Shown here: positions 13,624 through 59,251 of the stretch, piece after piece | How positions within the stretch are numbered: position 1 is the stretch's first letter | Layout: each line of letters opens with the position of its first letter | NCBI RefSeq assembly: GCF_002937075.1 | Contig: NZ_NHSJ01000040.1 | Location: forward strand, 1-64,000 | Origin: Rhodoblastus sphagnicola | GTDB lineage: Bacteria; Pseudomonadota; Alphaproteobacteria; Rhizobiales; Beijerinckiaceae | Reading direction: 5' to 3' | DNA length: 64,000 bases | Made by a program: the position numbers and the translations under genes | The notes under the pieces: generated by a model | The model's database searches: none | Told to the model about the DNA's origin: nothing | What the model saw: the letters and a program-made list of their open reading frames with translations, nothing else

Positions 13624-13646
13624 GCATCATCGCGGCCCAAACTTGC
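13624..13646 (-). promoter_or_regulatory. GCAAG-type flagellar upstream motif before fliF
   Basis: On the minus strand this contains GCAAGTTTGGGCCGCGATG. It is nearly identical to the element before the sugar C-methyltransferase gene (19519-19541; 22 of 23 bases) and related to elements before flgB, flhA, flgJ and a flagellin. The binding factor is not known; FtcR or a promoter are candidates. Confidence 0.6.
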
Positions 13647-13781
13647 GCGGAGGTTTTGAAGCAACTTTTCCGAAAGGTCGCACCCGAGCCGGATGCGCAG
13701 GATTGGCGCAAGCTCGGCGCCATTCAATCATGGCCACGCTGGGCCACGTCCCGGCGGATTCGGACAGACCAAGGGGATGCA

Positions 13782-14462
13782 ATGTTGCCGGTGACGATCG
13801 TCAGCGCCACGCGCTACAATCAGGCGAGCTTTTTCCAGAATTCCGCCCTGGGCCGCTGCCTGCAAACCTATGCGGCCTTTGGCGTCAAATCGCGACTCTT
13901 CTTCGAGAACAAGCGCGGGCTCGGCGTCTGCTACAATGAAGCGATCGCGGAAACGATCGACGAGGAAGAAATCCTGGTTTTCGTCCACGACGACGTGATG
14001 ATCGCGGACTTCTTCTGGGTCGACAAGCTGATGCTGGGCTTGAGCAAGTTCGACGTGATCGGTCTCGCCGGCAACAAGCGCCGGGTCGCGCGCCAGCCCG
14101 CCTGGGCTTTCGTGGATGAAAACTGGACCTGGGACGATCGCGCCAACCTGAGCGGCATCGTCGGTCACGGCGAAGGCTTTCCCTGCAATCTCGACGTCTA
14201 CGGCGACGTGTTCCAACCCCTGAAGCTGCTCGACGGCGTGCTGCTCGCCGCGAAAAAGAAGACCTTCTCCAGAAATGGCGTGCGGTTCGACGAACAGTTC
14301 AAGTTCCATTTCTACGACATGGATATCTGCCGCCAGTTCGAGGAGAGAAACCTCAGCATGGCCGCCGCGCCGATGGGCGTGATTCACCGCAGCGGCGGCG
14401 GCTTCGGCGGAGAGGAATGGCGCGCGGGCTATCAGAGCTATCTGGAGAAGTGGCGCGACTGA
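13782..14462 (+). CDS. Glycosyltransferase, GT-A (GT2-like) family
   Basis: The protein has 226 residues from MLPVTIVSAT. It has the pattern of a small GT-A enzyme: a Rossmann-like start, VFVHDDVMIADFFW with the Asp pair expected for metal and nucleotide-sugar binding, LLDGVLLAAKK, then FHFYDMDICRQFEER, which fits the conserved (E/D)D region near the catalytic base. No membrane helix is seen. It is divergent from fliF and convergent with the deoxysugar operon. Its donor is unknown; the adjacent GDP-sugar enzymes suggest a GDP-deoxyhexose. A start farther upstream in the same frame is possible but would cover the fliF promoter. Confidence 0.75.
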   Translation: MLPVTIVSATRYNQASFFQNSALGRCLQTYAAFGVKSRLFFENKRGLGVCYNEAIAETIDEEEILVFVHDDVMIADFFWVDKLMLGLSKFDVIGLAGNKRRVARQPAWAFVDENWTWDDRANLSGIVGHGEGFPCNLDVYGDVFQPLKLLDGVLLAAKKKTFSRNGVRFDEQFKFHFYDMDICRQFEERNLSMAAAPMGVIHRSGGGFGGEEWRAGYQSYLEKWRD

Positions 14463-14463
14463 T

Positions 14464-14562
14464 ACGAAATCAAGAATGATTCATTGTTGATTTCGTATTC
14501 CGCTCGCGCGGAATTCCGCGCGAGCTGTTTTCGCGGGTTGCGAAGCGATCTCGCGGAAACCG
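14464..14562. repeat. Intergenic structured repeat, family 2, copy A
   Basis: This element contains CGAAATC...GATTTCG, a perfect palindrome CTCGCGCGGAATTCCGCGCG (plus AG), then GTTGCGAAGCGATCTCGCGG ending in AAACCG. Related copies lie at 45021-45140 (inverted) and 46733-46847. It separates two convergent genes. Confidence 0.8.
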
Positions 14563-14593
14563 TATGTTTCGAGCGGGCCAGCTTCGAATCATT

Positions 14594-15541
14594 TCACCCG
14601 GCGCCGGTCGTCGCCGCGAGTTCGGCCTCGACCATTTCGCGAATCAGATCCTGAAAGGATGTCGTCGCGGACCAGCCCAACAGGCGGCGCGCCTTGGCGG
14701 GATCGCCGCGAAGCTCGCGCGTCTCCGCGCGACGTTCGGGCAGGTCCGCAAACACCACGTGACGTCTGAAATCCAGGCCGACCACCGCGAAGGCGGCTTC
14801 GCAAAGCTCGGCCACACTGTGCGTCACCCCTGTCGCCACGATGAAATCCTCGGCGTTCTCGGTTTGCAGCATCAGATGCAGCGCGCGCACGTGATCCCTG
14901 GCGTGACCCCAGTCGCGCCGATGGTCCGCCGGACCGAGGTGCAGGATTTCGCCCGAGCCGCGCGCGATTCGCGCAACGGCTTGCGCGACTTTCCGGGTGA
15001 CGAAATGCGCCGGCCGCAACGGGCTTTCATGATTGTAGAGAATGGCGCTACAGGCGAACAGGTTCTTCTGGTCGCGATAGGCGCGAACCATGTGCATGGC
15101 GTAAACCTTGGCCGCGCCATAGGCGTTGCAGGGGGAGACGGGCGTGGTTTCGGTCTGCGGCGTTTCCGAGGCGGCGGCGAAGATCTCGCTGCTCGACGCC
15201 TGACAGAACCGCGACCGTGGCGAAACCTGATGGATCGCCTCCAGCATGCGCGCAACCGCCAGACCGTTGATGTCGCCGCTCTGGATCGCATCGTCGAACA
15301 GTTGCGCGCTCGAAGCGCGCGCGGCGAGATTATAGACCTCGTCGGGCTGTAATTGCGCAAGCACGGCTCGGATGGCGTCGAAGCTGGTCAGGTCCAGATG
15401 CAGCAACCGGCCGCGATAGTCCGCGTCGGACACGGTTGTCCGATGGGTCGCGCCGAACACCTCATAGCGCTCGCCCAGCAGCAAATCCGTCAGATAGGCG
15501 CCGTCCTGGCCCAACGCACCGATCACCAGCGCCCGCTTCAT
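14594..15541 (-). CDS. GDP-mannose 4,6-dehydratase-like SDR (second paralogue)
   Basis: The protein has 315 residues and is an extended short-chain dehydrogenase. It has GALGQDGAYL for NAD(P) binding, PDEVYNLAARASS, a YGAAK motif with catalytic Tyr and Lys, SSSEIF, and [18 protein letters not shown], which is typical of the GDP-mannose dehydratase group. It is shorter than and divergent from the gmd next to it. It may act on the same GDP-sugar, for example as a 4-reductase or epimerase, but its motifs are nearer to Gmd than to RMD or GMER. It is the last gene of the minus-strand operon starting at 19497, 48 bases after gmd. Confidence 0.75.
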   Translation of the reverse strand: MKRALVIGALGQDGAYLTDLLLGERYEVFGATHRTTVSDADYRGRLLHLDLTSFDAIRAVLAQLQPDEVYNLAARASSAQLFDDAIQSGDINGLAVARMLEAIHQVSPRSRFCQASSSEIFAAASETPQTETTPVSPCNAYGAAKVYAMHMVRAYRDQKNLFACSAILYNHESPLRPAHFVTRKVAQAVARIARGSGEILHLGPADHRRDWGHARDHVRALHLMLQTENAEDFIVATGVTHSVAELCEAAFAVVGLDFRRHVVFADLPERRAETRELRGDPAKARRLLGWSATTSFQDLIREMVEAELAATTGAG

Positions 15542-15589
15542 TGTCGCTCCCCGGCGCCGGCGGCTCCGCCCTCATGCGGATTCCGCGTA

Positions 15590-16681
15590 TCACTCGAAAT
15601 GTTCAGCGTATTTGAAGCCGTTGTTCCTCACAAGCTGATCGCGCTTGGCCTCGGCGAGATCCGCCTGAACCATTTCGCTGACCAGCTCCTCGAAACTCGT
15701 CTCGGGGCTCCAGCCCAGCTCGCGGCGCGCCTTGGTGGCGTCGCCGAGCAAGGTTTCCACTTCCGCCGGGCGGAAGTAGCGCGGATCGACCTCGACGACG
15801 CAGGCGCCGGTTTGCCAGCAATAGGCTTTCTCATCCAGCCCCGACCCCTCCCAGCGCAGCGGCATGCCAAGCTCGCGCGCGGCGAGATCGACGAAATCCT
15901 TCACGGAATGCTGCGCGCCCGAGGCGATGACGAAATCGTCGGGCGTGTCATGCTGCAACATCATCCACATCGCGCGAACGTAGTCGCGCGCGTGTCCCCA
16001 ATCGCGCCGGGCGTGTACGTTGCCGAGGAAAAGGCGCTCCTGGATGCCGAGTTTTATGCGCGCCAGCGCGCGCGTGATCTTGCGCGTCACGAAGATCTCG
16101 CCGCGCACGGGCGATTCGTGATTGAACAATATGCCGTTGCAGGCGAACATCTGGTAGGATTCGCGATAGTTCACCGTCATCCAGTAAGCATAAAGCTTGG
16201 AGGCCGCATAGGGCGAACGCGGGTAGAACGGCGTCTTCTCGTTTTGAAGCGGCTCCTGCACCAGGCCGTAAAGTTCCGATGTCGAAGCCTGGTAGAATCG
16301 CGTCTTGCGTTCCAGGCCGACGATGCGGATGGCCTCAAGCAGGCGCATGGTCCCGAGACCATCGGCGTTGGCGGTATATTCCGGCTGCTCGAACGACACG
16401 GCCACATGGCTCTGCGCCGCAAGATTGTAAATCTCGTCGGCCTGGGTGCGTTCGACGATCCGGATCAGGCTCGACGAATCCGTCATGTCGCCATAGTGCA
16501 GCGTCAGGTCATTGCCCTGCGTGTGCACGTCGTGCAGCAGATGGTCGATGCGATCCGTGTTGAAGAGCGAGGCGCGGCGGCGCACGCCATGCACCGCATA
16601 ACCCTTGGCGAGCAGGAACTCCAGCAGATAGGCGCCGTCCTGGCCGGTGACGCCCGTAATCAATGCGGTCTTCTTCGCCAT
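15590..16681 (-). CDS. gmd: GDP-mannose 4,6-dehydratase
   Basis: The protein has 363 residues from [10 protein letters not shown]; the TTG at 16696 is less likely. It has the full Gmd signature: [59 protein letters not shown] with catalytic Tyr and Lys, [10 protein letters not shown] and [19 protein letters not shown]. It converts GDP-D-mannose to GDP-4-dehydro-6-deoxy-D-mannose, the precursor of fucose, rhamnose, perosamine and branched 6-deoxy sugars. In this operon it probably feeds the C-methyltransferase at 18253. Confidence 0.95.
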
Positions 16682-16692
16682 GGTTGCGCCGA

Positions 16693-17484
16693 TCAATGGG
16701 TTGCGGAAACGTTCACGTCATCCGACAAGACGACGTTGTGACCGAAGCGCGCGGGGCTTGCGCCCAGCTCGATACGCTTGAAGATCAGGAAACTGTGCAG
16801 GCGCTCCAGCAGGAAGCCGGCCGAGCGCCGCTGAGAACCCGATCGCGGAATGAAATGGCGCGAATGGAGAAACTGCGCGGCGGCTTTCAGAATCTGGAAG
16901 GTCCAGTTATAGCTGTCCTTGCTGAAGACCCCGATGTTGCACGAGGGAATGTGGTTCTGCACGCTCAGAAAGCTCGCCGCCTCCGTCGCATTCAGGATCC
17001 GGCTCTCCACCAGGAAGTTCACGAAGTTCAGGAGATCCTCGAGGACGTGGTCCAATGCGTACTGGCCGAGCATTTTCCCCGCGAAGCCGATCGGCGTGTT
17101 GAACAATTCCTGTTGCGTCGTTCGATCGAAGGCCGCGTCGAAAGCGCCGAGTTCATCGGCCCTGATGGTGGTCGCGTAGGGCAGATTGACCGAACGCCGG
17201 CCGACGGTGGGCGCGTCCGCCGCGACAAGGCGGCGATAGTGAAAAATCCGGATGAAGGCGCAATCGGGCGTCAGCTCGCCGAGATGATCGAGGATCCAGA
17301 TCAACTGGCCGTATTCCGACAAGGCGCCGCCGTTCGGACCGAAAAGGTTGTCGTCGACGATCGCCAGACGTTGCGCGCTCGCGATCAACTTCGGCGCCAC
17401 CATCAAGTCGATGTGGCGCGCGTAATCCGCCGGGAATGGCACATGCCCGAGGCAGACATTCAGCGTGTTCGTTGTCATGGTCAT
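16693..17484 (-). CDS. Unrecognised protein of the sugar operon
   Basis: The protein has 263 residues from [10 protein letters not shown]. It is soluble with no signal peptide. It starts with a beta strand and loop ([13 protein letters not shown]), has an early pattern [20 protein letters not shown], then [11 protein letters not shown] and a later hydrophobic helix. The pattern vaguely resembles capsule-type glycosyltransferases of the DUF4422 kind, but I do not recognise it with confidence. It lies 11 bases upstream of gmd and 34 bases downstream of the FkbM-like gene, so it is part of the operon. A transferase or modifying enzyme is likely. Confidence 0.6.
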
Positions 17485-17518
17485 GATGGCGCCGATGTTT
17501 GGATGGCCTCGCGGCCGT

Positions 17519-18235
17519 TCACTGGGCGAAGAGCAGATCCTGTGGCCAGGTGCTTTGCGCATTGATCGCTTGCAACTGCTCGATGATTTCCGGACGAACC
17601 GTTTGCGGATCGACCCACCAGTCCTCGAAGGGAATGGGCAGCGGCGACACCGGCGGGAACAGCACGCCGACATCCTTGGCCACCGCTTGATAGCCGTGGG
17701 CCGAAAGGATCGCGCGGCTCTCGTCGCGGGCGCGCGTGTCGCCGGCGTAAACGTCTGTCTCGAAGGTGATGACCGAAAAACGCCATTGCGCGAGCGGCAG
17801 CAGCTTTAACACGCCGAGCGTGTTGATCGAGGGATCGATGTCGAGCTGAAGATAGTCGAGTTGGCGATCCTCGCCGAACCATTGCGGCAGCGCCTGCGCG
17901 TAGTCGATCGACAAGGCGTCCGCGATCACCAGCTTGCTGTCCGGACGGCAGCGCTTCCAGTGCGGAAAATGGCTGGCGTCGAGTTCCAGGGTTACGCCGG
18001 TCCAGCCGAACTCGCGATGGAGCAGGCAGGTGTTGTTGTTGTCGATCGGCACATGGCCGCCGACTTCGAGATAGCGTCCCTCGCGCAAACCGCCGAGCGC
18101 CATCAGGACGAAAATGTCCTGCCAGGCTTGGGAATGATTTCGCGACAGTTTTTCGGCACCGAGGAAGGGGCTGCGCAGATGCGGCCCCATTTCGGCGGTC
18201 CATTGCCAATCGCGTCTGAAGATGGAAGGTGTCAT
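17519..18235 (-). CDS. FkbM-like SAM-dependent methyltransferase
   Basis: The protein has 238 residues. Residues about 34-80 show SQAWQDIFVLMALGG, GRYLEVGGHVPIDNNNT and GWTGVTLELD, the usual start of FkbM-family methyltransferases. Next come a short acidic SAM-binding strand and LDYLQLDIDPSINT. These enzymes mostly O-methylate sugars and are frequent in O-antigen, capsule and flagellar glycan clusters. It lies 17 bases downstream of the C-methyltransferase gene and is cotranscribed with it. Substrate unknown; the deoxysugar of this operon or the glycan built from it is the likely target. Confidence 0.8.
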   Translation of the reverse strand: MTPSIFRRDWQWTAEMGPHLRSPFLGAEKLSRNHSQAWQDIFVLMALGGLREGRYLEVGGHVPIDNNNTCLLHREFGWTGVTLELDASHFPHWKRCRPDSKLVIADALSIDYAQALPQWFGEDRQLDYLQLDIDPSINTLGVLKLLPLAQWRFSVITFETDVYAGDTRARDESRAILSAHGYQAVAKDVGVLFPPVSPLPIPFEDWWVDPQTVRPEIIEQLQAINAQSTWPQDLLFAQ

Positions 18236-18252
18236 CGCACAAGTCTCCGACG

Positions 18253-19518: not shown

Positions 19519-19541
19519 GCATCATCGCGGCGCAAACTTGC
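19519..19541 (-). promoter_or_regulatory. GCAAG-type flagellar upstream motif before the sugar operon
   Basis: On the minus strand this contains GCAAGTTTGCGCCGCGATG. It differs by one base in 23 from the element before fliF, and the flanks are also alike. It suggests that the sugar operon is controlled with flagellar genes. Confidence 0.65.
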
Positions 19542-19583
19542 GCGAGGGTATCGCGCGTCGACAACGCCGGCGCCGCCGCGCGT

Positions 19584-22028
19584 TCAAACCAACGCGGGTT
19601 CGACCTCGACGCAAAACGCCTGTGGCTGTTCGCCCGCGACGAACCGCCGCCACATCTGGCGATAGGCGGATTCCAGCGTCGCCGTGAATTTCGGGCCGTC
19701 GCTGAACGGCGCGGCCTCGAAAGCCGGCCTCAAGGCATGGCGCATCTCGCGCAGCTTTTCCGGGTCCGCGACCAGTTCGAGCGCGCGCGCGACATATTCG
19801 TCCTTCGAGCGCACCGCGAGATGGTCGAAGCCCATGGAGCCGAGGAAGCCCAAGGTCTGGCGCGAGGCGAGCTTTTCGCCGGGCAAGGTCACGACCGGAA
19901 CGCCCATCCACATCGCCTCGCAACTCGTCGTCGCCCCGCCGAACGGGAAGGGATCGAGCGCGACGTCAAGATCGTTGTATTCGTCCATCATGTCCGGATA
20001 GGGCGACGGCCCGCGCAGGTCGACGCGTTCCGGCGCGACGCCAAAGCGACGGAAAGACTCATGGACACGCTCGCGAACGCTCTCCACCGCCATGCTCTTC
20101 CACTTGAGCACCAGCCGCGCGTCGGGACGGGCTTCCAGGATTTTCGCCCACAGTTCGATGACGCCCGGACGCAATTTGGAAATATTGTTGAAACTGCCGA
20201 AGGTCGGATATCCGTTCTTGAGCATCGGCGGATCGACCACGACTTTTTCCACGGCGAGCGGCCGGTAGCAGAAACGTCCGTAAGGCAGGCGCACCACCGA
20301 TTCGGTGTACCAATGGTCGGTTCCCGGCGGCGCCGAAATTGAATCGAGGATGATGTAGTCGATCGTTTTCACGCCGGTCGTGCCGAGATAGCCGATCCAG
20401 CTCGCCTGGATCGGCGCGGGCTTGTAGGCGAACAGCGGCAGGCGCGTGTAATTGGTGTGGCCGGCAAGATCCACGAGAATGTCGATTTCGTCGGCCCGGA
20501 TCATTTCCGCCGCCTCTTCTTCGGTCGCGCCGAAGATTTCGCGCCAGTGATCGGAGTGCTTTATGATCTCCTCGGTGTAGAAATCCACCAGCGGGCGATT
20601 GCTGTAACAATAGATTTCAACCTTGTCGCGGTCATGCGCCTCGAGGCTGTTCAAGACGAAATAGCCGACCGGATGGGCGCTGAAATCGCCCGAGACATAG
20701 CCGATGCGCAGCCGCCGCTCCGGCGAAAGGTCGCGCGGCGGCAGAGGCGCCGGCTGCACCCGATCCATCACCACGCCGAAAGCCCGCGCGGTGGCGAGGA
20801 GATCGTCGTTGCCATAGACATCGCTGTACTGCATCGCCAGAAGCTTGTTGCAGTGGGCGGCGTAATATTGCGGGTCGATGTCGAGCGCGCGGCCATACGA
20901 AGCGATGGCGTCTTCGGTCAACCCTTCGTCGAGAAGCGCGACGCCCAGATTGTTATGCGTGCCGACGTGATTGGGATTGATCTCGAGCGCCCTGGCGAAG
21001 CTGCGAATGGCCTGATCGAGTCGCGTGGCCGTGGTGAGCGTGGTGCCGAGATTGAAATGGCCATCGGCTTGCGTGGAGCTCTCGGAAAGATCGATGGCGC
21101 GGTCGAACGCCTCGATCGACTCATCGAGCCGGTCGAGTTGCATCAGCGTCGCGCCGAGATTGTTTTGCGCTTCCAGGCAGTCCGGCTGGAGCGCGACGGC
21201 GCGCTCAAGGTGAACCAACGCTTTATCATGTTGGCTTAACGCCGCGAGACCCGCGGCGAGGTTCACGAGCGCCTGGGGGAAGTCGGGCTGGCAAGCCAGG
21301 GCCTGCGAGGCCGCCGCGATCGCCTCCTCGATGTGCCGTGACATCAGCAGGGCGATGCTCCGGCTGTTATGGGCCTCGGCATATTGCGGCCGCGCCGCCA
21401 GGGCGCGGTCAAGGACGCTCACGGATTCGTCGTACTTGCCGCGCAGACGCAAAATATTGCCGAACGTATTGCAGGCTTCGGGACAATCCGGCGCGATCTC
21501 CAGCGCGCGCCGGCAACTCGCTTCGGACGCATCGAAATCGCATTTGTCATAGAAGGCTTTGGCGAGATTGGCGTGGGCGTCGGCGTAACTCGGCCGCAAG
21601 TCGGTCGCGCGTTGATAGGAGGCGATCGCCTCATCGCGGCATCCGAGTTTCAGTTGGATGTTGCCCAAGGCGTTGTAGGCCTCGGGATAATCGGAGCGCA
21701 ACGCCAGGGCGCGATAGACCGCCGCCAGGGCTTCATGCGGCCGGTCGCGGGCGAGCAGGACCAGCCCATGATTGTTGTGAAAGGTCGGATCGTCACGCTG
21801 GCCGATGGCTTCGGTCAGGAAGACTTCGGCGAGGTCGGGACGCCCCACGATATAACAAAGCACGCCCATGCCATGAAGCGCGTCGGCGTGTGTCGGGTTG
21901 ACTCCGAGGATGCCGCGATAGAGCTGTTCCGCGGTGTCGAGGTCACCCTCCTGATGAGCCTTGGCGGCGAGAAAGAAGCTTTGCCGCACCACTTCATCAG
22001 GCGACATCGGCGGGAGTGCAAAACTCAT
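19584..22028 (-). CDS. SPINDLY/OGT-type TPR glycosyltransferase (GT41-like)
   Basis: The protein has 814 residues from MSFALPPMSP. Residues about 15-420 are eleven or so TPRs, with recurring patterns such as YRGILGVNPTHADALHGMG. Residues about 440-790 form an O-GlcNAc-transferase catalytic region: RLRIGYVSGDFSAHPVGYF, AGHTNYTRLPLFAYKPAPIQ, and PFPFGGATTSCEAMWMG near the C-terminus. Family members attach a sugar to Ser/Thr of proteins. It lies 106 bases after a flagellin gene on the same strand, so flagellin is the likely acceptor. The frame opens 31 codons earlier, but the Met chosen lies close to a TTTC-rich leader and gives a normal start. Confidence 0.88.
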   Translation of the reverse strand: MSFALPPMSPDEVVRQSFFLAAKAHQEGDLDTAEQLYRGILGVNPTHADALHGMGVLCYIVGRPDLAEVFLTEAIGQRDDPTFHNNHGLVLLARDRPHEALAAVYRALALRSDYPEAYNALGNIQLKLGCRDEAIASYQRATDLRPSYADAHANLAKAFYDKCDFDASEASCRRALEIAPDCPEACNTFGNILRLRGKYDESVSVLDRALAARPQYAEAHNSRSIALLMSRHIEEAIAAASQALACQPDFPQALVNLAAGLAALSQHDKALVHLERAVALQPDCLEAQNNLGATLMQLDRLDESIEAFDRAIDLSESSTQADGHFNLGTTLTTATRLDQAIRSFARALEINPNHVGTHNNLGVALLDEGLTEDAIASYGRALDIDPQYYAAHCNKLLAMQYSDVYGNDDLLATARAFGVVMDRVQPAPLPPRDLSPERRLRIGYVSGDFSAHPVGYFVLNSLEAHDRDKVEIYCYSNRPLVDFYTEEIIKHSDHWREIFGATEEEAAEMIRADEIDILVDLAGHTNYTRLPLFAYKPAPIQASWIGYLGTTGVKTIDYIILDSISAPPGTDHWYTESVVRLPYGRFCYRPLAVEKVVVDPPMLKNGYPTFGSFNNISKLRPGVIELWAKILEARPDARLVLKWKSMAVESVRERVHESFRRFGVAPERVDLRGPSPYPDMMDEYNDLDVALDPFPFGGATTSCEAMWMGVPVVTLPGEKLASRQTLGFLGSMGFDHLAVRSKDEYVARALELVADPEKLREMRHALRPAFEAAPFSDGPKFTATLESAYRQMWRRFVAGEQPQAFCVEVEPALV

Positions 22029-22082
22029 TTCAATTTCCTTCACCAAACCGCTTGTCTTGACCAAATCCACGACTCCCCTTAC

Positions 22083-23091: not shown

Positions 23092-23401
23092 GGCGGTTCG
23101 ATCCCAAGGCTATGCGGATTTGCACTGGGAACGTTCCGGGGCCTTCGAGCGCGCAGAAAGCCGGCGCGACTTCGTCTGACCTGACGCCGCTTGCCTCGAT
23201 GCCTTTCTTTCGAAATGCGATGCGATGCAAGGTTGGCGACATCCGGAGTCTCCCACTGGCGCGATTCCCGAAAACAGACGCGAATCGCGTCGGACGCTGA
23301 GGCCCGTGAGAATCGTTTAACCATGCCAAGCTGGATCGAGGCTGAAATGCCAACGGCCGCGCTCTTTCGAGCGCGGCCGCCAAAGTTTGTTTTTGGACCG
23401 A
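23092..23401. other. 310-base intergenic region between the two flagellin genes
   Basis: The region should hold the promoter and leader of the downstream flagellin. No gene is supported. It contains the hairpin at 23355-23378 after the upstream flagellin. A sequence GCAAGCGGCGTCAGGTCAGA (minus strand, around 23180) resembles the GCAAG motif only weakly. Confidence 0.4.
23355..23378 (-). terminator. Hairpin after flagellin 2
   Basis: GGCCGCGCTC and GAGCGCGGCC pair with a four-base loop, 23 bases after the stop codon. It ends the flagellin transcript or stabilises its 3' end; the following T content is low. Confidence 0.6.
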
Positions 23402-24481: not shown

Positions 24482-24505
24482 GCAACCTAGCCGCGAAAAC
24501 TTGCC
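24482..24505 (-). promoter_or_regulatory. GCAAG-type flagellar upstream motif before flagellin 2
   Basis: On the minus strand this contains GCAAGTTTTCGCGGCTAG followed by GTTGC. It is nearly the same as the element before flgJ (GTAAGTTTACGCGGCTAGAT) and related to that before flgB. Confidence 0.6.
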
Positions 24506-27349: not shown

Positions 27350-27371
27350 CGCGGGCCTTCCTTCGCCCGCA

Positions 27372-27391
27372 CTGTCGCCCGGCAAGCTTGC
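27372..27391 (-). promoter_or_regulatory. GCAAG-type motif before motE
   Basis: On the minus strand this reads GCAAGCTTGCCGGGCGACAG, similar to the element before flhA. It lies between flgI and motE, so there may be an internal promoter. The match is weaker than others. Confidence 0.35.
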
Positions 27392-27420
27392 GCCGCGCTG
27401 GCGCGGCGCGGCGGCGTTAA

Positions 27421-30970: not shown

Positions 30971-30994
30971 GAAGATTAGACGCGCAATCTTGCC
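30971..30994 (-). promoter_or_regulatory. GCAAG-type flagellar upstream motif before flgB
   Basis: On the minus strand this contains GGCAAGATTGCGCGTCTAAT followed by CTTC. It shares GGCAAG, TT, CGCG and CTA with the flagellin copy and CGTC with the flhA copy. Confidence 0.6.
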
Positions 30995-32242
30995 TCAGGC
31001 TGGCCCAGTAGCCTGATCGCCAAGATGCTGATCGCGCGGCTGCTCCCGCGCCCCGACCATGCGGCTGAAGGCGTCGAACAGCCGACGCATGTGCGCCGAT
31101 TTGTAGGGAAAGGTGATGGGGCAATCGAGATCGTGCGCGATCATCGCCGTCCCGATCTCGAAGATCAGCAGGCGACCGTCGTCGGTCTCCGCGCAATCGA
31201 TCTGAAAGTAGTCGAGGCCGAGGCGCCGCTTGAGGCCGTCGAGCGCGCCGGCGTGACGCCGCGCGAATGTGGCGAACTCGCGCATGAAAGCCTCTTCCTC
31301 CGCGCGATTTTCGGCGCTGTAGAGCATGTCGGCGTTGAGATAATGCACCATCCAGCGCGACGAGACCGCATAGTGGATGGGCAAGGCTTCCCCGGCGATG
31401 AAGGCGATACGGATCTTGCGGTACCTGCCGTCTGCGCCCACGTAATCGACGAAGGGCGCGACATAGAATTCATCGACCTGATGCGCGCGCAGATAGGCCT
31501 TGAGTTCAACCGCGTTGGCGATCTGTTCGAGTTCCTCGCCCGCATGGGAATCGACGGGCCGGACGATGATCGGAAACGAATCGGTCTCCGCGGCGAGCCC
31601 CTCGCGGGTCACGCGGCGATTCTCGGGGAACGACACGCCATCGAGATCGCGCAGCAGGCGCCAGGCGCCATCGCGGGTCAGACGCGCGATCGCCGCGGGA
31701 TTGTTCAGGATGGGGCGCGGCCAACGCGGGGCCGCCTCGTCGATCAGAGCGAGGATTTTTTGATTGGCGCGGGATTCCGCGACGGCGACGAAGGCGATGT
31801 CGTGCGGGGGCGGCGCAATGAGGTCCGCCTCGCTCTGGACATAGAGGAAATCGAGATTGACGCCTGAGCCTTCGAGCAGGAATTCCACCGGCGCGTTCGC
31901 CATGAAATCGCCGGGCGCCAGCAGCGCCAGCAGGCGCGGCGCGCCGGGGATCGTCTCGTTCTGCGCGAACAGGTTGCGCCGTTCAAGCGCCGCCCGCTGC
32001 AAGCGCATCCGCGCAGCCGGCGAGCCGCGCAATTGCTCCACCGTCGACAAATCCATCAGCGCATTGGCGTCGTCTGGATTCGCCGCGATGCGCGCCTGAA
32101 GCGCTTGCGCGAAGGGCGCGAGCGATTCGCCGCGCATGGCGCGACGCGTCAGCCCGGCGAGACCGATCAGCGGTGGTTCGGTCAGGCCGACCGCCCCGGG
32201 AAGAGAGTCTTGGCGGGGAAGGGCGGACAGCATTTTCGACAT
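30995..32242 (-). CDS. ATP-grasp-like protein between cheR and flgB
   Basis: The protein has 415 residues from [10 protein letters not shown]. Residues 1-110 are helical and TPR-like ([18 protein letters not shown]). Residues about 120-400 resemble an ATP-grasp enzyme: [40 protein letters not shown], and [20 protein letters not shown] with FEIGTAM as a metal-binding end. ATP-grasp enzymes form amide or ester bonds with an acyl phosphate intermediate, so this could modify a protein or make a small peptide. Neighbours: cheR 47 bases upstream, flgB 60 bases downstream. Its substrate is unknown. Confidence 0.7.
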
Positions 32243-32289
32243 GACGAGGCTCCAGGGACGGGCCTCCGACCGGCGCGGCGCCCAAAACC

Positions 32290-33159
32290 CTATTTTGCCG
32301 CGCGGGCTTGCTCCAGGCTGGCGCCGCCGCGCGCAGCCTCGTGATTCGATGTCGCGGCGCGCCGCGTGAGGATGACGCGATTGTCCGAATGCGGCTTGAA
32401 TTCGGAGGAATAGCCGATCACGCTCTCCGCAGCGCCCAGCACCAGGAAGCCGTCCGGCGCCAGCCTTTGCGCCATGCGATTGAGCACGTCGCGTTTCTGA
32501 TCCGGAGCGAAATAGATCAGCACATTGCGACAAAAGATCACGTCGAACTGGCCGAGTTGGGAAAAGTCGGACATCAGATTCTGCTGGCGGAAATCCACGC
32601 GCGCGCGGATGTTCTGGTTGATCACCCAATTGTCCTTGCGCTTGGCGAAATAGCGCACGAGATGCTGCGCGGGCAGGCCGCGCTGCGCCTCGAAATGGGT
32701 GTAGACGCCGTCCTTGGCTTTCTTCAGCACGGATTCGGCGATGTCGGTGGCGATGATGTCCACCGTCCATCCGGCCATCGTGCGCGCCTCCTCGTCAATG
32801 ATCATGGCGAGGGAATAGGGCTCCTGACCTGTCGAGCAGGCCGCCGACCAGATCCGCAGCTTGCGCTGCCGCGCCCGGATTTTTACCAGTTCCGGCAGGA
32901 TGGCGCTGCGGAAGCCTTCAAACGGCTGACGATCGCGGAAAAAGAAGGTCTCGTTGACCGTCATGGCCTCGATGACCTTCTTGGCGAGCGCCTTGTCGGT
33001 CTCGATCATGATGACGAGTTCGCCGAGATCGCTCAGGCCCGCCTGCTCGATCACCGGCGTCAGCCGCGCCTCGACAAGATATTTTTTCTCCTTGTCGAGC
33101 GACAGGCCGGAGGATTTCAACAGAAAGGCTTGCAGGGCCGAAAACGCTTGTTGGGACAT
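32290..33159 (-). CDS. cheR: Chemotaxis protein methyltransferase CheR
   Basis: The protein has 289 residues from MSQQAFSALQ; the in-frame TTG six bases upstream is less likely. It has the helical N-terminal domain and the SAM-binding domain: NETFFFRDRQPFEGFR, RIWSAACSTGQEPYSLAMII, FDVIFCRNVLIYF and GFLVLGAAESV. It methylates glutamates of chemoreceptors. It follows cheY and belongs to the cheA operon. Confidence 0.96.
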   Translation of the reverse strand: MSQQAFSALQAFLLKSSGLSLDKEKKYLVEARLTPVIEQAGLSDLGELVIMIETDKALAKKVIEAMTVNETFFFRDRQPFEGFRSAILPELVKIRARQRKLRIWSAACSTGQEPYSLAMIIDEEARTMAGWTVDIIATDIAESVLKKAKDGVYTHFEAQRGLPAQHLVRYFAKRKDNWVINQNIRARVDFRQQNLMSDFSQLGQFDVIFCRNVLIYFAPDQKRDVLNRMAQRLAPDGFLVLGAAESVIGYSSEFKPHSDNRVILTRRAATSNHEAARGGASLEQARAAK

Positions 33160-41647: not shown

Positions 41648-41670
41648 ACAAGTGAATGCGAAATCTTGAA
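41648..41670 (-). promoter_or_regulatory. GCAAG-related motif before flgF
   Basis: On the minus strand this reads TTCAAGATTTCGCATTCACT and then TGT. It keeps CAAG, TT and CGC of the motif but is more divergent. Confidence 0.4.
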
Positions 41671-41735
41671 GAGACAACCAATCCTTAACCATCGGCGCTG
41701 GCGCGAGGCTGACGCGCGGGGGGCGCCAGCCTCAC

Positions 41736-41758
41736 GCAAGCCCGACCACGCACTAATG
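41736..41758 (+). promoter_or_regulatory. GCAAG-type motif before motA
   Basis: On the plus strand this reads GCAAGCCCGACCACGCACTA and then ATG, 32 bases before the motA start. It is most like the flgE element (GCAAGCCTGAACGGGCACAA). Confidence 0.5.
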
Positions 41759-50480: not shown

Positions 50481-50503
50481 GCAATCTAGCCGCGTAAACT
50501 TAC
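50481..50503 (-). promoter_or_regulatory. GCAAG-type flagellar upstream motif before flgJ
   Basis: On the minus strand this contains GTAAGTTTACGCGGCTAGAT and then TGC. It overlaps the fliJ stop and is nearly the same as the flagellin copy. It may give an internal promoter for flgJ-flgN. Confidence 0.6.
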
Positions 50504-50898
50504 GGGAGGCTTGAGGACGCGCGCGCCGCCAGACTTTCGCCGATGTCCAGCAATTGCAGTTTCTCGTCTTCCCGCGCGATGGACACCGCGGTCTCCTTGA
50601 CGATTTTTTCCAGCGTCTTCTTTTGCGCCGAGCGTTGCAGCAATTGCGCCTTCTGCGCCGACTCCTCCGCCGCCAAGTCGATCTCGCGCCGTTCCGACTG
50701 GATCAGGTGACGGCAGGCGAGCCCAAGGATGAACGAATCGTTCTTCTCGACATCGCCAAGCATTCTCAGCAAGGCGCGTTTCTCCTCCTCCACCAGGATC
50801 CTTCTCCGCTGGATTTCCCCGAGCTTGGCCTCGTCGATCTGGTGGAGTTGGGCTTTCACGCGCAGCAGGCGCTGGAGTGAACGATGTCTTTCACGCAT
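50500..50898 (-). CDS. fliJ: FliJ-like export chaperone
   Basis: The protein has 132 residues from [10 protein letters not shown]. It is one long charged coiled coil (LLRVKAQLHQIDEAKLGEIQ; LVEEEKRALLRMLGDVEKND), which fits FliJ, the stalk of the FliI ATPase. It lies after fliR with stop and start overlapping by one base (TGATG). The place and shape support the call; sequence identity with known FliJ is low. Confidence 0.7.
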   Translation of the reverse strand: MRERHRSLQRLLRVKAQLHQIDEAKLGEIQRRRILVEEEKRALLRMLGDVEKNDSFILGLACRHLIQSERREIDLAAEESAQKAQLLQRSAQKKTLEKIVKETAVSIAREDEKLQLLDIGESLAARASSSLP

Positions 50899-53767: not shown

Positions 53768-53793
53768 GTCTCATCCTCGTTGAAGCGCGGACC

Positions 53794-53816
53794 GAAGATG
53801 GACGGGCAAGCTTGCC
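53794..53816 (-). promoter_or_regulatory. GCAAG-type flagellar upstream motif before flhA
   Basis: On the minus strand this reads GGCAAGCTTGCCCGTCCATC and then TTC. It shares GGCAAG-N-TTGC-N-CGTC-N-A-N-CTTC with the flgB copy. Confidence 0.55.
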
Positions 53817-53904
53817 TCAAACTGCCGCGCGTGGTTAACGCATGGTCCCGAAATGCGGGGCGTGTTTTCGGATGAGACCAGGCGCAGGAAAGCGAGCGCG
53901 GTCT

Positions 53905-54171: not shown

Positions 54172-54179
54172 CGTCTCTC

Positions 54180-55022: not shown

Positions 55023-55029
55023 AAGCGCC

Positions 55030-55377
55030 TCACACCAGTCCGTCGCGGATGATCACGTTGATTTCGATGAGATCGGAGAAACTGTCGGCCGCGCCGGTGC
55101 GCAGGCGTTCGATTTCCTTGATGATCCAGATGCCGATGGAGATGAGCTGCGCCCGCACGGCTTCCGGAAGTTCGTTGCCGTTGCTGCCGAGATCGTCGAT
55201 GAAGATCGACCACAGCCGGCGGGTATAAATCAGGGCGTCGTTCGCCTCCGGCGAGGCGACGCCCGCTTCGTGGGCGCGCTGTAGCAACTCGACGGCGCGG
55301 CCGAGCGCATCGCGCTCGCGCGCGCGCATTTCCTGGGGGGAGTCTTCGACGACTTCTGCATAAGTAAACTGGTACAT
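55030..55377 (-). CDS. flaF: Flagellin-associated regulator FlaF
   Basis: The protein has 115 residues of the FlaF family (ALGRAVELLQRAHEAGVASP; LIYTRRLWSIFIDDLGSNGN; ISIGIWIIKEIERLRTG). In Caulobacter FlaF acts opposite to FlbT and is needed for flagellin secretion. It lies between flgL and flbT, as in other Rhizobiales. Confidence 0.95.
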   Translation of the reverse strand: MYQFTYAEVVEDSPQEMRARERDALGRAVELLQRAHEAGVASPEANDALIYTRRLWSIFIDDLGSNGNELPEAVRAQLISIGIWIIKEIERLRTGAADSFSDLIEINVIIRDGLV

Positions 55378-55400
55378 GGGTCAGTCCCGCGCATTTCAGG

Positions 55401-56456
55401 CTAAAGAAAATTGACCAGGCTCAGCTTGTGAATCTGCGACGTAAGCGAATAAGCGACCTGCAACTGGGTGGAGAGAGCGCTCACCTGCGAGGCGACGTCG
55501 TAGTCGTTGATCGCCTCGTTGGCGTTGAGCTGCGTGTTCAGCACATTCTGCTGGAGCGTGATGCCGGAATTGGCCTGTTTGACGGCGCTCTGCATCGTGC
55601 CGATCGTCGCGGCGGTCTCGGTGAACTGGTTGTTCGCGTCGGTCATCACCTTTTGCGCCTGTGTCAGCATCGCGGAATAAGCGCCCGAGTTCAGGTTCTG
55701 GTTGGCGAAGACGCTGACCATCGTCAGGCCTTGCGCCATCGTCTGAAACGACTGGTCGTTGGCTGTGACCGAGGTCGTCTCGGTGAGGTTGAGGCTGATG
55801 CGGTTGGTCAGCGGCGTGCTGTTGGCATCCGACCAGTTGCTTGTCCAACTGCTGCCGGAGAACAGCGAGGTGAAGGACGTTCCAGTGAGGAACGTTGTCA
55901 TCTGCGTGTCGCTGATCGTGTTGACGCTCAGACTATTCGCCGAGAGATAAGCGTTGAAAGCGGTCTGCACGGCCGTCTGCGCCGGGCCTGTCGAAGACGC
56001 GGCGGTGGACTTGATGGCGGCGTTTCCCGTGTTGATTCCGCCGAAGACATAGACCCCGGCGACTTCGGAATTGGCCGAGGCCACGAAGCTCGACAGAGCG
56101 CCCGCGGCGACCTTCTGTAGCGCCGCCGACCCCGAACTGCTGGGGGTGGACGACAGGCCGGTGATGACCTGCTTCAGCACGCTGGAGGCGCTTTGCTGGA
56201 GCGTGGTGGCGGCTGTGTAGGCGGTGTCGAGCTGGGTGGTGACGACCGAGTTGGAGCTCGTCAGACTGGTCAAGTCGGCATATTGCTGATGCAGGGAGAT
56301 GTCCCGTCCAGACCCGGCGCCGAGGCTCAAGCCGATGTCCGCGAGCAAGCCGGTGGATTCCTCCTTCGAGACCGTGCTCATTTGCGATTGCAGGCGCGAC
56401 ACCGTGTTCTGCAGAACGGTCGCAAGAGTCGAAGAGGAAACGGAATTCACGGCCAT
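55401..56456 (-). CDS. flgL: Hook-filament junction protein FlgL
   Basis: The protein has 351 residues. It shows flagellin-like coiled ends (TVLQNTVSRLQSQMSTVSKE and LSTQLQVAYSLTSQIHKLSL) and a central domain with GVYVFGGINTGNAAIKSTAA. It starts one base after the flgK stop. It joins FlgK to the filament. Confidence 0.92.
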   Translation of the reverse strand: MAVNSVSSSTLATVLQNTVSRLQSQMSTVSKEESTGLLADIGLSLGAGSGRDISLHQQYADLTSLTSSNSVVTTQLDTAYTAATTLQQSASSVLKQVITGLSSTPSSSGSAALQKVAAGALSSFVASANSEVAGVYVFGGINTGNAAIKSTAASSTGPAQTAVQTAFNAYLSANSLSVNTISDTQMTTFLTGTSFTSLFSGSSWTSNWSDANSTPLTNRISLNLTETTSVTANDQSFQTMAQGLTMVSVFANQNLNSGAYSAMLTQAQKVMTDANNQFTETAATIGTMQSAVKQANSGITLQQNVLNTQLNANEAINDYDVASQVSALSTQLQVAYSLTSQIHKLSLVNFL

Positions 56457-56457
56457 G

Positions 56458-57936
56458 TCACGCCACCGCCTGAAGGAGGGATCCGAACATCGCGTTGATC
56501 GTCGAAATCAGCTTGGCCGAAGCCTGGTAGGCATTTTCGAATTCGAGCATTTTCGACATCTGCTGGTCGATGTTGACGCCGGTGGCGTTGGACAGCGCCT
56601 GCGACGTCTGCGACAGCAGCGTGGTGTGGTAGGTCGCGTCGTTGCTCGCCCCCTGATATTTGCTGTTGAGCCAACTCGCCGAATCCGACGCGTAGGAGGT
56701 GAGGCTGCTGGAGGTCGAGAGCGCGGTTCCCGACGGATAGGTCGTCGCGGAGCTGAGGTTCGAGATGTAGCCGCGCAGCAACGTGTTGAAGCTCGCTGCG
56801 GGGGGGGTGCTGTTCTGGCTGACGCCGTTGATCGAGCCGTCGCGAATGTTGGTGTAGCTGCCGCCCCGGGAGGGATCGGCGCCGGCGCTGACCTGGATCG
56901 AGCCCGCGAGGCCCGCATCCACCGTCGCTGTCGGAATCGTGGCCGTGTTGGCCGAGGCTCTGAACAGACCCGCCACCGGGCCCAAGCCGCCGGTTTCGGC
57001 GAAGGCGTTGATCAACCCGCCCGCGATCGAATCGAGCTGGTTCTGATAGGTGACCGCGACACTGTCGCGCACGTCGGCGTAGCCTTTGAGCGCGCCGGAC
57101 TGGATCGGCATGACGGCGCTGGAGCCCGTCACGGGAACGCCATCGACATAGACCGCATTGCCGGCGACCGAGGCGGTATAAGAGGTCTGCGGCGTCATGG
57201 TGACCGTGCGCGGACTGGTCTCGAACAGGGTGACGCCGCTGTCGGTGTAGATCGACATCGAGCCGTTGGAATTGGTGAGCGTCGAGATCCCGATTTCCTT
57301 CGACAGGCTCTGCAGGAGCGTCGAGCGCTGGTCGAGCGCGTCGGTGATGTCGGAGCCGCTCGCCGTGCCCTGGACGATCGTGGTGTTGACCCCCTGGAAC
57401 TGCTTGAGCAGATTGGTGATGGTCGCCACCGAAGTGACCATGTCCTGATCGGCGGTCTCACGCGCGTTCTGCGTGGTCGTCGTGGCGTCGTTCAGGCCGT
57501 TGGCGAGATTGGTCGCCGCCGTGACCACGGCGGCGGCGGCGGAGGTATTGCTCGGTGACGAGGAATAAGTCTGCAAGGCCGAGGACATGGCCTGCAGCAG
57601 GGTCGAGGGCGACTGCGCGGCCGTGGTCGAATCCGTCGTCGTGGTGGAATCGGCGACGGTCTTCTGCAACAGCGTCACGCCATCGGAAAGGGCCTGGGCC
57701 GCCGCATTGCTCGCTGTTCCCGCCAGCATGGTGTTGAACAGCGAAGTGTTGGTCAGGTTGGCGATCGACTCGATGATCCCGGCGCCGTTGGCGCCGGTGA
57801 TGACATTGGCGACTTTCGCCGAGACATAGCCCGTTGTGTTCTGCGCATTGGAAACATTGCGCGAGACGATCGCCTGGAGCCCCGCGTTGGTCGCAAGCGA
57901 GCTCGAGGCGATGTCCATGGCATTGGTGAGACCCAT
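56458..57936 (-). CDS. flgK: Hook-filament junction protein FlgK
   Basis: The protein has 492 residues. It begins with SSLATNAGLQAIVSRNVSNA, carries ITDALDQRSTLLQSLSKEIG and ends with MSKMLEFENAYQASAKLIST and a short hydrophobic tail. It is Thr/Ser/Ala-rich, as usual. It connects the hook to FlgL. It is 24 bases after flgE. Confidence 0.94.
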   Translation of the reverse strand: MGLTNAMDIASSSLATNAGLQAIVSRNVSNAQNTTGYVSAKVANVITGANGAGIIESIANLTNTSLFNTMLAGTASNAAAQALSDGVTLLQKTVADSTTTTDSTTAAQSPSTLLQAMSSALQTYSSSPSNTSAAAAVVTAATNLANGLNDATTTTQNARETADQDMVTSVATITNLLKQFQGVNTTIVQGTASGSDITDALDQRSTLLQSLSKEIGISTLTNSNGSMSIYTDSGVTLFETSPRTVTMTPQTSYTASVAGNAVYVDGVPVTGSSAVMPIQSGALKGYADVRDSVAVTYQNQLDSIAGGLINAFAETGGLGPVAGLFRASANTATIPTATVDAGLAGSIQVSAGADPSRGGSYTNIRDGSINGVSQNSTPPAASFNTLLRGYISNLSSATTYPSGTALSTSSSLTSYASDSASWLNSKYQGASNDATYHTTLLSQTSQALSNATGVNIDQQMSKMLEFENAYQASAKLISTINAMFGSLLQAVA

Positions 57937-57960
57937 GGCTGTTCATCCGCTCCGTGATTG

Positions 57961-59199
57961 TTAGACCTGCATGTTGATCAGCGTGTCCAGACATTGGGCG
58001 CCGGTCGAGAACATCTTGGAATTGGCCTGATAGTTGCGTTGAGCCACGATCATGTTGGTGAGTTCGGTCGCGATATCGACGGTGGATTGTTCGAGATTGC
58101 TGGACTTGATCGTGCCGAGCTGTCCGGTTCCAGCCACGCCCACGTTCGCCTGGCCCGACTCGAGGGTGGGCGAGAAGACGTTGCCAGTCCCAGACAGCAT
58201 GTTGATCGGGCTCGCCACCGAGGCGAGTGGAATCTTGTACGCCGCCACCGACGTGCCATCGGCGAGCTGGTAGGACAGGGTTCCGTCGGTGCTGATGCTC
58301 ACGGAACTGATGCTTGAGGCGGCGTGACCGGTCATGTCCGATTTCGACACCGCAAAGGCGGTCGAGTACTGGGTCATGCCCGACAGATCGAGCGTCACGG
58401 GGTTGGTGGGGAGGGCGCCGTTTGCGTTGGGCAAGTTGAAGCTCATTGAGGTCGCGCCCAAGGTGCTGCCGGTGAAGTTGAGGGCCGTCGTCGAGCCGGT
58501 GAGCGCCGTCGCCCCGAGATAGGCCGCCGCGCTCCAGGTGTTCGCGCCCGTCTTGAGGAAGTAGAGGTTGACGATCTCCGCGGCGCCCTGACTGTCGTAC
58601 ATCGTGATCGACGTCTGCGAGGTGAAACTGGTGTTGCTGACCGGGCCGGCCCCGCTCGTTGCCGTCGAATCCAGGTTGGCGCTGAATGTCCCGGTGGAGG
58701 TCGCCACCGCCGGAAGAATGCCTGTCGCCACTTTGACGTTGGTCATACCGGTCAGCGAGTTGGACGACATGGCCGGCAAGGTGCCGCTCGCCGAATAGGC
58801 GTAGCCCATCAGATAATAGCCGGCGGAGTTGTAGAGATTGCCGCTATTGTCGGTCACGAAGGAGCCGGAGCGGGTGAGAAAGTTTTCGCCGGAGCCGCTG
58901 GAGCTGTTGGCGCTGTTGGAGACGACGAAGAAGCCGTTGCCGTTGACGGCGAGATCGGTCGTGGAGGTGGTGCTCTGGAGCGTACCCCGTTTGGCGGCTT
59001 CAACGCGCGTGGTGGTATAGACGCCGCCCGCCGAAGTCTGACCGACGGCCGACTGGTCGACGAGGGTGGAGAACTCCGTGTCCGCCTGCTTGTAGCCAGG
59101 CGTGCTCGCATTCGAGATATTCTGGCCAATATTGCTCAGATAATTAGATTGCGCGTTCATGCCAGTTACGCTGGCGTTCATGGCGTCATAGATGCCCAT
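57961..59199 (-). CDS. flgE: Flagellar hook protein FlgE
   Basis: The protein has 412 residues. The start MGIYDAMNASVTGMNAQSNY, then NISNASTPGYKQADTEFSTL, the core TDLAVNGNGFFVVSN and the end ELTNMIVAQRNYQANSKMFS are typical of hook proteins. It is the first gene of the large minus-strand operon flgE-flgK-flgL-flaF-flbT-flgD-fliQ-flhA-fliR-fliJ-flgJ-flgN-49049. Confidence 0.96.
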   Translation of the reverse strand: MGIYDAMNASVTGMNAQSNYLSNIGQNISNASTPGYKQADTEFSTLVDQSAVGQTSAGGVYTTTRVEAAKRGTLQSTTSTTDLAVNGNGFFVVSNSANSSSGSGENFLTRSGSFVTDNSGNLYNSAGYYLMGYAYSASGTLPAMSSNSLTGMTNVKVATGILPAVATSTGTFSANLDSTATSGAGPVSNTSFTSQTSITMYDSQGAAEIVNLYFLKTGANTWSAAAYLGATALTGSTTALNFTGSTLGATSMSFNLPNANGALPTNPVTLDLSGMTQYSTAFAVSKSDMTGHAASSISSVSISTDGTLSYQLADGTSVAAYKIPLASVASPINMLSGTGNVFSPTLESGQANVGVAGTGQLGTIKSSNLEQSTVDIATELTNMIVAQRNYQANSKMFSTGAQCLDTLINMQV

Positions 59200-59230
59200 C
59201 GCGATGCTCCTGCCCTCATGGCTCCTCCCT

Positions 59231-59251
59231 GTTGTGCCCGTTCAGGCTTGC
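59231..59251 (-). promoter_or_regulatory. GCAAG-type motif before flgE
   Basis: On the minus strand this reads GCAAGCCTGAACGGGCACAA followed by C. It matches the motA element best and lies 32-52 bases before the flgE start. Confidence 0.5.

What the first reader, a model, noticed from the sequence alone, without database searches (positions are those of the whole stretch)
13624..59251. A recurrent GCAAG-containing motif precedes most flagellar transcription units in this window
By eye, related sequences lie 15-56 bases before the start codons of fliF (13624-13646), the sugar operon (19519-19541), motE (27372-27391, weak), flgB (30971-30994), flgF (41648-41670, weak), motA (41736-41758, plus strand), flgJ (50481-50503), flhA (53794-53816) and flgE (59231-59251), and about 120 bases before flagellin 2 (24482-24505). 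Best pairs: flagellin GCAAGTTTTCGCGGCTAG and flgJ GTAAGTTTACGCGGCTAG; flgB GGCAAGATTGCGCGTC and flhA GGCAAGCTTGCCCGTC; motA GCAAGCCCGA and flgE GCAAGCCTGA. Orientation always matches the gene. No sigma-28 or sigma-54 consensus fits and no fliA is in the window, so this may be a promoter or operator of a non-canonical regulon, perhaps bound by FtcR.
Basis: seen in the sequence. Interest (0 to 1): 0.85.

Follow-up and report, generated by a model that had tools for sequence, protein, structure and literature searches.

The report
Order-wide flagellar promoter box, likely FtcR's
A short DNA signal in front of most flagellum operons of this purple bacterium is real, recurs before flagellum operons in many related bacteria, and looks like the landing site of the flagellar master switch protein FtcR, which would make that switch's targets predictable from sequence.

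Summary
The genome is Rhodoblastus-like. De novo search of 30 operon-head upstreams finds the motif above all 60 shuffles. The element is an 11-bp direct repeat, cAGCYTC-N4-AAGCYTG, six bases, then a sigma-70-type -10 (TAnnnT), without a -35. It precedes flhA, flgE, flgJ, motA and fliF in most relatives, not operon-internal genes, nor the second fliF of eight of those genomes. FtcR orthologues occur in 26 of 27 genomes of this flagellar type and 3 of 23 others; those three also carry a system of this type. Best explanation: an FtcR/Rem/LafR activator box replacing the -35. Binding is untested; the one published FtcR motif I saw (TGTGGGCA) differs; the original Rem paper was not available.

The parts
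13624..13657 (-). Box plus -10 before fliF (start codon 13590)
   Evidence: 26.8 bits with the 19-species matrix, rank 1 in the window; site at fliF in 26 of 30 relatives
59229..59262 (-). Box plus -10 before flgE (start 59199)
   Evidence: rank 2; 20 of 22 relatives' flgE have the site
19519..19552 (-). Box plus -10 before the C-methyltransferase/sugar genes (start 19497)
   Evidence: rank 3; downstream genes include a C-methyltransferase and GDP-mannose-dehydratase-like proteins; that they form one operon is inferred
50481..50514 (-). Box plus -10 before a flgJ-like gene (start 50456)
   Evidence: rank 4; Rod-binding domain 24.4 bits, just under the cut-off of 25.1; 16 of 24 relatives
30971..31004 (-). 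Box plus -10 before flgB-flgC-fliE-flgG-flgA-flgI (start 30934)
   Evidence: rank 5; 28.4 bits with the 57-site independent matrix; families
41725..41758 (+). Box plus -10 before motA-fliM-small ORF-fliG (start 41790)
   Evidence: rank 6; 5 of 6 relatives' motA; families
53793..53826 (-). Box plus -10 before flhA-fliR (start 53767)
   Evidence: rank 7; 22 of 27 relatives' flhA, 19 of these in the matrix used
3572..3605 (-). New site, not in the finding, before ORF 3164-3544 (126 aa, no family over a cut-off)
   Evidence: rank 8; 18.6 bits with the independent matrix; ORF conserved in L124 (R. acidophilus) and L125
27369..27402 (-). Box plus -10 before motE-like gene-flgH-fliL-fliP (start 27349)
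   Evidence: rank 9; 19.8 bits
41680..41713 (-).
32289..32322 (-). Weaker site before ORF 30995-32242 (415 aa, no family), in the che region
   Evidence: 14.9 bits; 2.7 bits with the 19-species matrix
3626..3659 (+). Weaker site before ORF 3709-4035(+), divergent from ORF 3544
   Evidence: 13.7 bits
24482..24515 (-). Half match (downstream half-site and -10 only) 121 bp before flagellin 2
   Evidence: 6.1 bits
4597..5268 (-). ftcR, OmpR/PhoB-type regulator, the proposed binder
   Evidence: Trans_reg_C domain; 97% identical protein in R. acidophilus and 50% or more in 26 of 27 genomes of this flagellar type

Best explanation
The motif is the core of an activator-dependent promoter of the flagellar class II operons. 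Two FtcR protomers bind head-to-tail to the direct repeat cAGCYTC-N4-AAGCYTG (11 bp, one helical turn). The box takes the place of the -35 element and ends about six bases before a sigma-70-type -10 hexamer (TAnnnT), so that bound FtcR recruits the housekeeping RNA polymerase. Boxes stand before the fliF, flgB, motE-flgH, motA, flgF, flgJ, flhA and flgE units, the sugar genes and probably some chemoreceptor genes; the two flagellins have only poor matches and the che region one weaker site. Shown by computation: the motif, its repeat anatomy, its fixed spacing to the -10, its place at operon heads, its conservation and its co-occurrence with FtcR. Inferred: that FtcR is the binder, that it activates, and where transcription starts.
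For: De novo signal above 60 of 60 shuffles in the window and in relatives' flhA upstreams (358.9 against 114-146 in 10 shuffles). Cross-species prediction of the window sites; in reverse, a matrix of nine window sites ranks the flhA-upstream site first or second in its locus in 21 of 27 loci of this flagellar type and in 2 of 53 others. Operon heads: flhA 22 of 27, flgE 20 of 22, flgJ 16 of 24, motA 5 of 6; internal genes: fliR 0 of 27, fliQ, flgD, flbT and flaF 0 of 25 each, flgL 0 of 24, flgK 0 of 22. fliF, no fliF site in the matrix: 26 of 30. Second fliF in eight of the same genomes: 0 of 8. 11-bp direct repeat: 3 of 20,000 column permutations at spacing 11, 90 of 20,000 over all spacings of 5 or more. 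FtcR in 26 of 27 against 3 of 23 genomes. Sites of 14 bits or more in 25 of 25 FtcR-type loci against 4 of 20 FtcR-less loci, Fisher p 7.5e-9. FtcR is of the OmpR/PhoB family, and the stretch that I take for its recognition helix reads E[SG]H[IV]SKLRKKL in 30 of 30 aligned proteins.
Against: No binding or transcript-start data were available. The published Brucella ChIP-seq motif for FtcR is TGTGGGCA, confirmed there by gel shift (PMC9456535, passages), and occurs in 0 of 30 operon-head upstreams here. FtcR and this flagellar system are inherited together, so co-occurrence cannot exclude another regulator of the same clade. An inverted-repeat reading is not excluded (21 of 1,000 permutations over columns 1-26, 58 of 1,000 over columns 3-21). 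The genome of L023 has the box at flhA, but no FtcR orthologue was found in that MAG. Five of 27 loci lack a good box at flhA, two MAGs lack it at an FtcR-type fliF (L227, L228), and the one fliF inside the flhA loci also lacks it. flgF reaches 12 bits in 1 of 5 and the DUF1217 gene in 1 of 7 relatives. No good box precedes ftcR itself here, and 1 of 13 relatives scores within 250 bp of ftcR. Most off-cluster genome hits have no motility link.
Confidence: 0.82

Rival explanations
1. The box is bound by another regulator of the same clade (for example VisNR, a LuxR-type pair, or an unknown protein), with FtcR acting elsewhere.
For: Co-inheritance cannot separate regulators of one clade; the published FtcR motif differs; the anatomy alone does not name a protein.
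Against: B. diazoefficiens has no visNR (review passage), and the box is at the FtcR-type fliF in 4 of 4 Bradyrhizobium genomes that have one. The 11-bp direct repeat suits an OmpR/PhoB-type protein. FtcR is said to bind upstream of fliF in Brucella (passage), where relatives carry the box.
Confidence: 0.12
2. It is the promoter of an alternative sigma factor (sigma-28, sigma-54 or an ECF sigma), so the conserved left part is a -35 or -24 element.
For: Two conserved blocks at a fixed distance are promoter-like.
Against: No FliA over the curated cut-off in the genome; sigma-28 and sigma-54 consensus fits no better than shuffles at the ten sites; the right block is the ordinary TAnnnT; the left block spans about 17 bp as a repeat, longer than a -35. 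ECF factors were not tested.
Confidence: 0.04
3. CtrA or another cell-cycle regulator sets these promoters and the GCAAG block is incidental.
For: TTAA-N7-TTAA within one mismatch lies near the flgB and motE sites (as good in 0.02 and 0.00 of 50 shuffles).
Against: The other eight sites show no such match and the box does not resemble it; loci of FtcR-less genomes lack the box beyond chance.
Confidence: 0.02

Closest known systems
Pho box and other OmpR/PhoB-family activator sites overlapping or replacing the -35 (PhoB; BasR/PmrA, solved as 4s04, 4s05 and 8jo2, listed)
   Same: Two head-to-tail half-sites one helical turn apart, no clear -35, intact -10. [quoted passage not shown] the 11-bp repeat of PhoB sites is recalled.
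   Different: Different half-site sequence (AGCYT). LafR is reported not to need phosphorylation (passage). The box is tied to one flagellar system across many genera.
FtcR / Rem / LafR flagellar master regulators (Brucella, Sinorhizobium, Bradyrhizobium)
   Same: Same protein family and target class: FtcR is said to bind upstream of fliF (passage); Rem activates class II genes (review passage).
   Different: The published Brucella ChIP-seq motif TGTGGGCA does not match this box and is absent from the 30 window upstreams. Rotter et al. 2006 on Rem is not held, so whether it names a similar sequence is unknown to me.
Motif 2 of the Sinorhizobium meliloti start-site map (TTTGTTAACCAT, PMC3616915)
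   Same: De novo motif upstream of mapped starts in a relative.
   Different: Unrelated sequence; no motif like this box is named in the passages I saw; its tables were not open to me.

Membership tests
OmpR/PhoB-type class II activator site | Direct repeat of half-sites one helical turn (10-11 bp) apart | tested here: met
   Spacing 11 scores 2.49, next best 1.31 at spacing 4; 3 of 20,000 permutations at spacing 11, 90 of 20,000 over spacings of 5 or more
OmpR/PhoB-type class II activator site | Box in place of the -35 with a sigma-70 -10 at fixed distance | tested here: met
   75 ungapped sites: A28 91%, T32 77%; sigma-70 -35/-10 fits no better than shuffles at the ten window sites. Transcription starts were not available
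FtcR/Rem/LafR regulon | Regulator gene present where the motif-bearing system is | tested here: met
   26 of 27 against 3 of 23 genomes; the one miss is a MAG, and one of the 26 is a partial match
FtcR/Rem/LafR regulon | Motif at fliF, the reported FtcR target | tested here: met
   26 of 30 relatives, no fliF site in the matrix; Brucella itself was not examined
FtcR/Rem/LafR regulon | Direct binding of FtcR to the box | not testable with these tools
   Needs a gel shift or footprint
FtcR/Rem/LafR regulon | Match to the published FtcR motif TGTGGGCA | tested here: not met
   0 of 30 operon-head upstreams; one occurrence in the 64 kb, both strands
Sigma-28 (FliA) promoter | FliA in the genome; TAAA-N15-GCCGATAA | tested here: not met
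   3 hits, none over the cut-off; 4-5 mismatches, as in shuffles (consensus recalled)
Sigma-54 promoter | TGGCACG-N4-TTGCW | tested here: not met
   3-5 mismatches, as in shuffles (consensus recalled)
CtrA site | TTAA-N7-TTAA | tested here: not met
   Not in the box; near-matches beside flgB and motE, 2 of 10 sites (pattern recalled, a similar one is in a passage)

The most novel reading that the evidence does not exclude
This is the true, order-wide DNA code of the FtcR/Rem/LafR flagellar master regulators: a phosphorylation-independent orphan response regulator whose 11-bp direct-repeat box replaces the -35 of nearly every class II flagellar operon, marking only this flagellar system even in cells with two, and the published Brucella motif is not the flagellar one.
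Probability: 0.6. Interest if true: 0.72.

Novelty: new member of a known kind. Interest (0 to 1): 0.62.

Why it matters
Rhizobia and their relatives run flagella through the regulator FtcR/Rem/LafR, and in the literature I could reach the only stated binding motif for it does not occur at these promoters. A box that predicts the regulon, perhaps including off-cluster chemoreceptors, lets the hierarchy be read from genome sequence and gives a direct, cheap binding test.

Tried and rejected
Inverted-repeat reading (GCAAG-CTTGC palindrome): attractive at flhA and motE, but across 75 sites the direct repeat at 11 bp is better supported. Sigma-28, sigma-54 and CtrA: not supported. Published TGTGGGCA motif: absent. 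Autoregulation of ftcR by the box: not supported. Off-window hits without an evident motility gene: C87:92093 (23.3 bits with the independent matrix, no clear gene downstream) and most others. Genome ranks are partly circular, since the models hold the window sites; one search is the fair test, though its 400 kb come from three contigs and are not a random sample.

Choices made. The 19-species matrix left out 8 of the 27 loci (L009 and L010 as close relatives, L015 as a duplicate of L014, L016 and L024 as weak, L017, L034 and L038 as lacking a site); its site positions came from a joint run that included L009 and L010. In one search, 19 of the 22 flhA sites were in the matrix used; relatives' flgE, flgJ and motA sites were not. 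In one search, 23 of the 53 other-type loci were searched for FtcR. Of 21 off-window loci translated, five were chosen by eye for Pfam. Structure prediction and fold search were not run.
Full report
Setting. The window is contig C40:1-64000 of a 5.09-Mb genome of 99.3% completeness. Its FlhA is 90% identical to that of Rhodoblastus acidophilus DSM 142, then 84% to a MAG, then near 70% to Methylobacterium, Phyllobacterium and others. It holds a flagellar cluster; the genome has one FlhA. Families were checked by Pfam and NCBIfam for most, not all, genes named here. An OmpR/PhoB-type regulator, taken as FtcR from its orthologues' reported role, lies at 4597-5268.

Is the motif there and more than chance? 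All ten quoted sequences are present. I predicted genes from codon usage, took 150 bp before 30 operon heads regardless of function, and ran a ZOOPS expectation-maximisation search. It returned a GCAAG motif with an upstream extension (CAGCCTCGCGCAAGC), assigned to 22 of 30 heads, 13 of them with 10 or more units of log-odds at width 24. Its score, 135-138, exceeds all 60 dinucleotide shuffles (mean 99.3, s.d. 4.3, maximum 112.2).

Independent tests. The same search on 220 bp before flhA in 27 related loci scored 358.9, against 114-146 in ten shuffles; 22 of the 27 carry the box, 18 with GCAAG and 4 with GTAAG or ACAAG, in Methylobacterium, Phyllobacterium, Microvirga, Mesorhizobium, Bradyrhizobium, Bartonella and others. 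A 57-site matrix without Rhodoblastus relatives gives 9 positions of 16 bits or more in the 64-kb window against 2 in 400 kb of three other contigs. In reverse, a matrix from nine window sites ranks the flhA-upstream site first or second in its locus in 21 of 27 loci of this flagellar type (FlhA 60-90% identical) and in 2 of 53 loci with the other FlhA type (41-47%).

Corrections. The flgF site is 41680-41713, not 41648-41670. The flagellin-2 site lacks the first half-site. A new strong site stands before ORF 3164-3544. Weaker ones of 12 to 15 bits stand before ORF 3709-4035, before ORF 30995-32242 in the che region, and 222 bp before flagellin 1 (23313-23346), and one lies inside a gene (8757-8790).

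Anatomy. Seventy-five distinct sites align without gaps over 34 bases: positions 3-9 cAGCYTC, 14-20 AAGCYTG, 27-32 TAnnnT, with A4 96%, A15 and G16 100%, A28 91%, T32 77%. Correlating columns gives one clear direct repeat, at 11 bp (3 of 20,000 permutations at that spacing, 90 of 20,000 over spacings of 5 or more; with columns 3-21 only, 5 and 196 of 20,000); the best inverted repeat is weaker (21 and 58 of 1,000). There is no sigma-70 -35 beyond chance. This is the layout of an OmpR/PhoB-type activator site that stands in for the -35; the PhoB case is described in a passage of PMC3616915.

Where it occurs. Within 250 bp of the start, sites of 12 bits or more precede flhA in 22 of 27 loci, flgE in 20 of 22, flgJ in 16 of 24, motA in 5 of 6, flgB in 1 of 1, flgF in 1 of 5 and fliF in 0 of 1; but fliR in 0 of 27, fliQ, flgD, flbT and flaF in 0 of 25 each, flgL in 0 of 24 and flgK in 0 of 22. 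The flhA count is largely training data; relatives' other sites are not. A wider test of fliF, with no fliF site in the matrix, finds it in 26 of 30 relatives at rank 1 or 2 of the locus; the misses are one truncated hit, one FliF of the other type and two MAGs. Eight of these genomes have a second, 29-32% identical fliF: 0 of 8 carry the site, whereas the FtcR-type fliF of the same eight all do. In the own genome, of 21 off-window hits examined, four lie before chemoreceptor-type or PilZ genes (C82, C73, C126, C78; the last two are weaker, partial matches), the others before unknown or unrelated genes or none. The C73 chemoreceptor has a 71% identical relative in R. acidophilus that also carries a site.

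Which protein? FtcR orthologues (50% identity or more; the next best matches have 38% or less) were found in 26 of 27 genomes of this flagellar type, one of them partial, and in 3 of 23 others; those three have an FtcR-type fliF with the site elsewhere in the genome. With a ten-site window matrix, 25 of 25 FtcR-type loci (Rhodoblastus relatives left out) have a site of 14 bits or more against 4 of 20 loci of FtcR-less genomes, where the rate (0.91 per 100 kb) is not above the shuffled rate (1.44). The stretch that I take for FtcR's recognition helix is E[SG]H[IV]SKLRKKL in 30 of 30 aligned proteins. A review passage says that LafR controls the lateral but not the polar flagella of B. diazoefficiens, and that this species lacks visNR (PMC8429497). 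The site is at the FtcR-type fliF in 4 of 4 Bradyrhizobium genomes that have one, and at their second fliF in 0 of 4; that the second is the polar one is my inference, and a fifth genome labelled Bradyrhizobium gave only the other FliF type. A passage of PMC9456535 says that FtcR binds upstream of fliF in Brucella. Against this, the same paper's ChIP-seq motif is TGTGGGCA (118 of 363 peaks, with gel shifts on ftcR and betI), found in 0 of 30 upstreams here. The paper's RNA-seq was from 20-day biofilms; I did not see the culture conditions of its ChIP. That its motif may reflect other targets is my inference.

Sigma factors. The genome has no FliA match over the cut-off; the best, 107.9 bits in a 711-aa frame, is probably the housekeeping sigma factor (my reading). 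Sigma-28 and sigma-54 consensus fits are no better than shuffles. ECF factors were not examined.

Literature. I made eight searches for FtcR, Rem, LafR and the motif and saw passages of eight papers (PMC9456535, PMC8639532, PMC8429497, PMC4018554, PMC5596199, PMC10469942, PMC7003649, PMC3616915); none was read whole. None of those passages names this box. Rotter et al. 2006, the Rem paper, is not held; it may describe a binding sequence, so I do not claim first description.

Verdict.

Noticed in passing
window 4049-4495 (+): A 148-aa ORF next to ftcR looks PilZ-like by eye (no family search was run on it) and has relatives within the flagellar loci L012 and L013. It may be a c-di-GMP receptor linked to the flagellum.
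   Followed up: partly
own genome G000:C125:22831-22862 (L099/L156): A strong site (25.2 bits) stands before an unknown small protein with no Pfam match.
   Followed up: partly
own genome G000:C17:4242-4273 (L166): A 24.3-bit site 25 bp before a 204-aa Ser/Asn-rich protein with no Pfam match.
   Followed up: partly
window 19584-22064 and R. acidophilus L193, L184: A TPR/glycosyltransferase-type gene beside the flagellins; in R. acidophilus two TPR genes with glycosyltransferase-family matches carry sites of 22-23 bits. This may mean flagellin glycosylation under the same control.
   Followed up: partly
L016, L024, L034 (Aureimonas): The flhA upstream has no standard box but TTAAC-containing sequence, while flgE (L016, L034) and fliF (L214, L215, L216) keep the standard box.
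   Followed up: no
window, near 30971-31004 and 27369-27402: CtrA-like TTAA-N7-TTAA near-matches beside the flgB and motE promoters: possible cell-cycle input.
   Followed up: no
window 4315-5337 (+): A 340-aa open frame antisense to ftcR gives matches in many relatives, probably because it shadows the conserved gene.
   Followed up: no
own genome G000:C23:7659-8048 (L122): A flagellin-domain gene lies outside the cluster, besides the three in the window.
   Followed up: no
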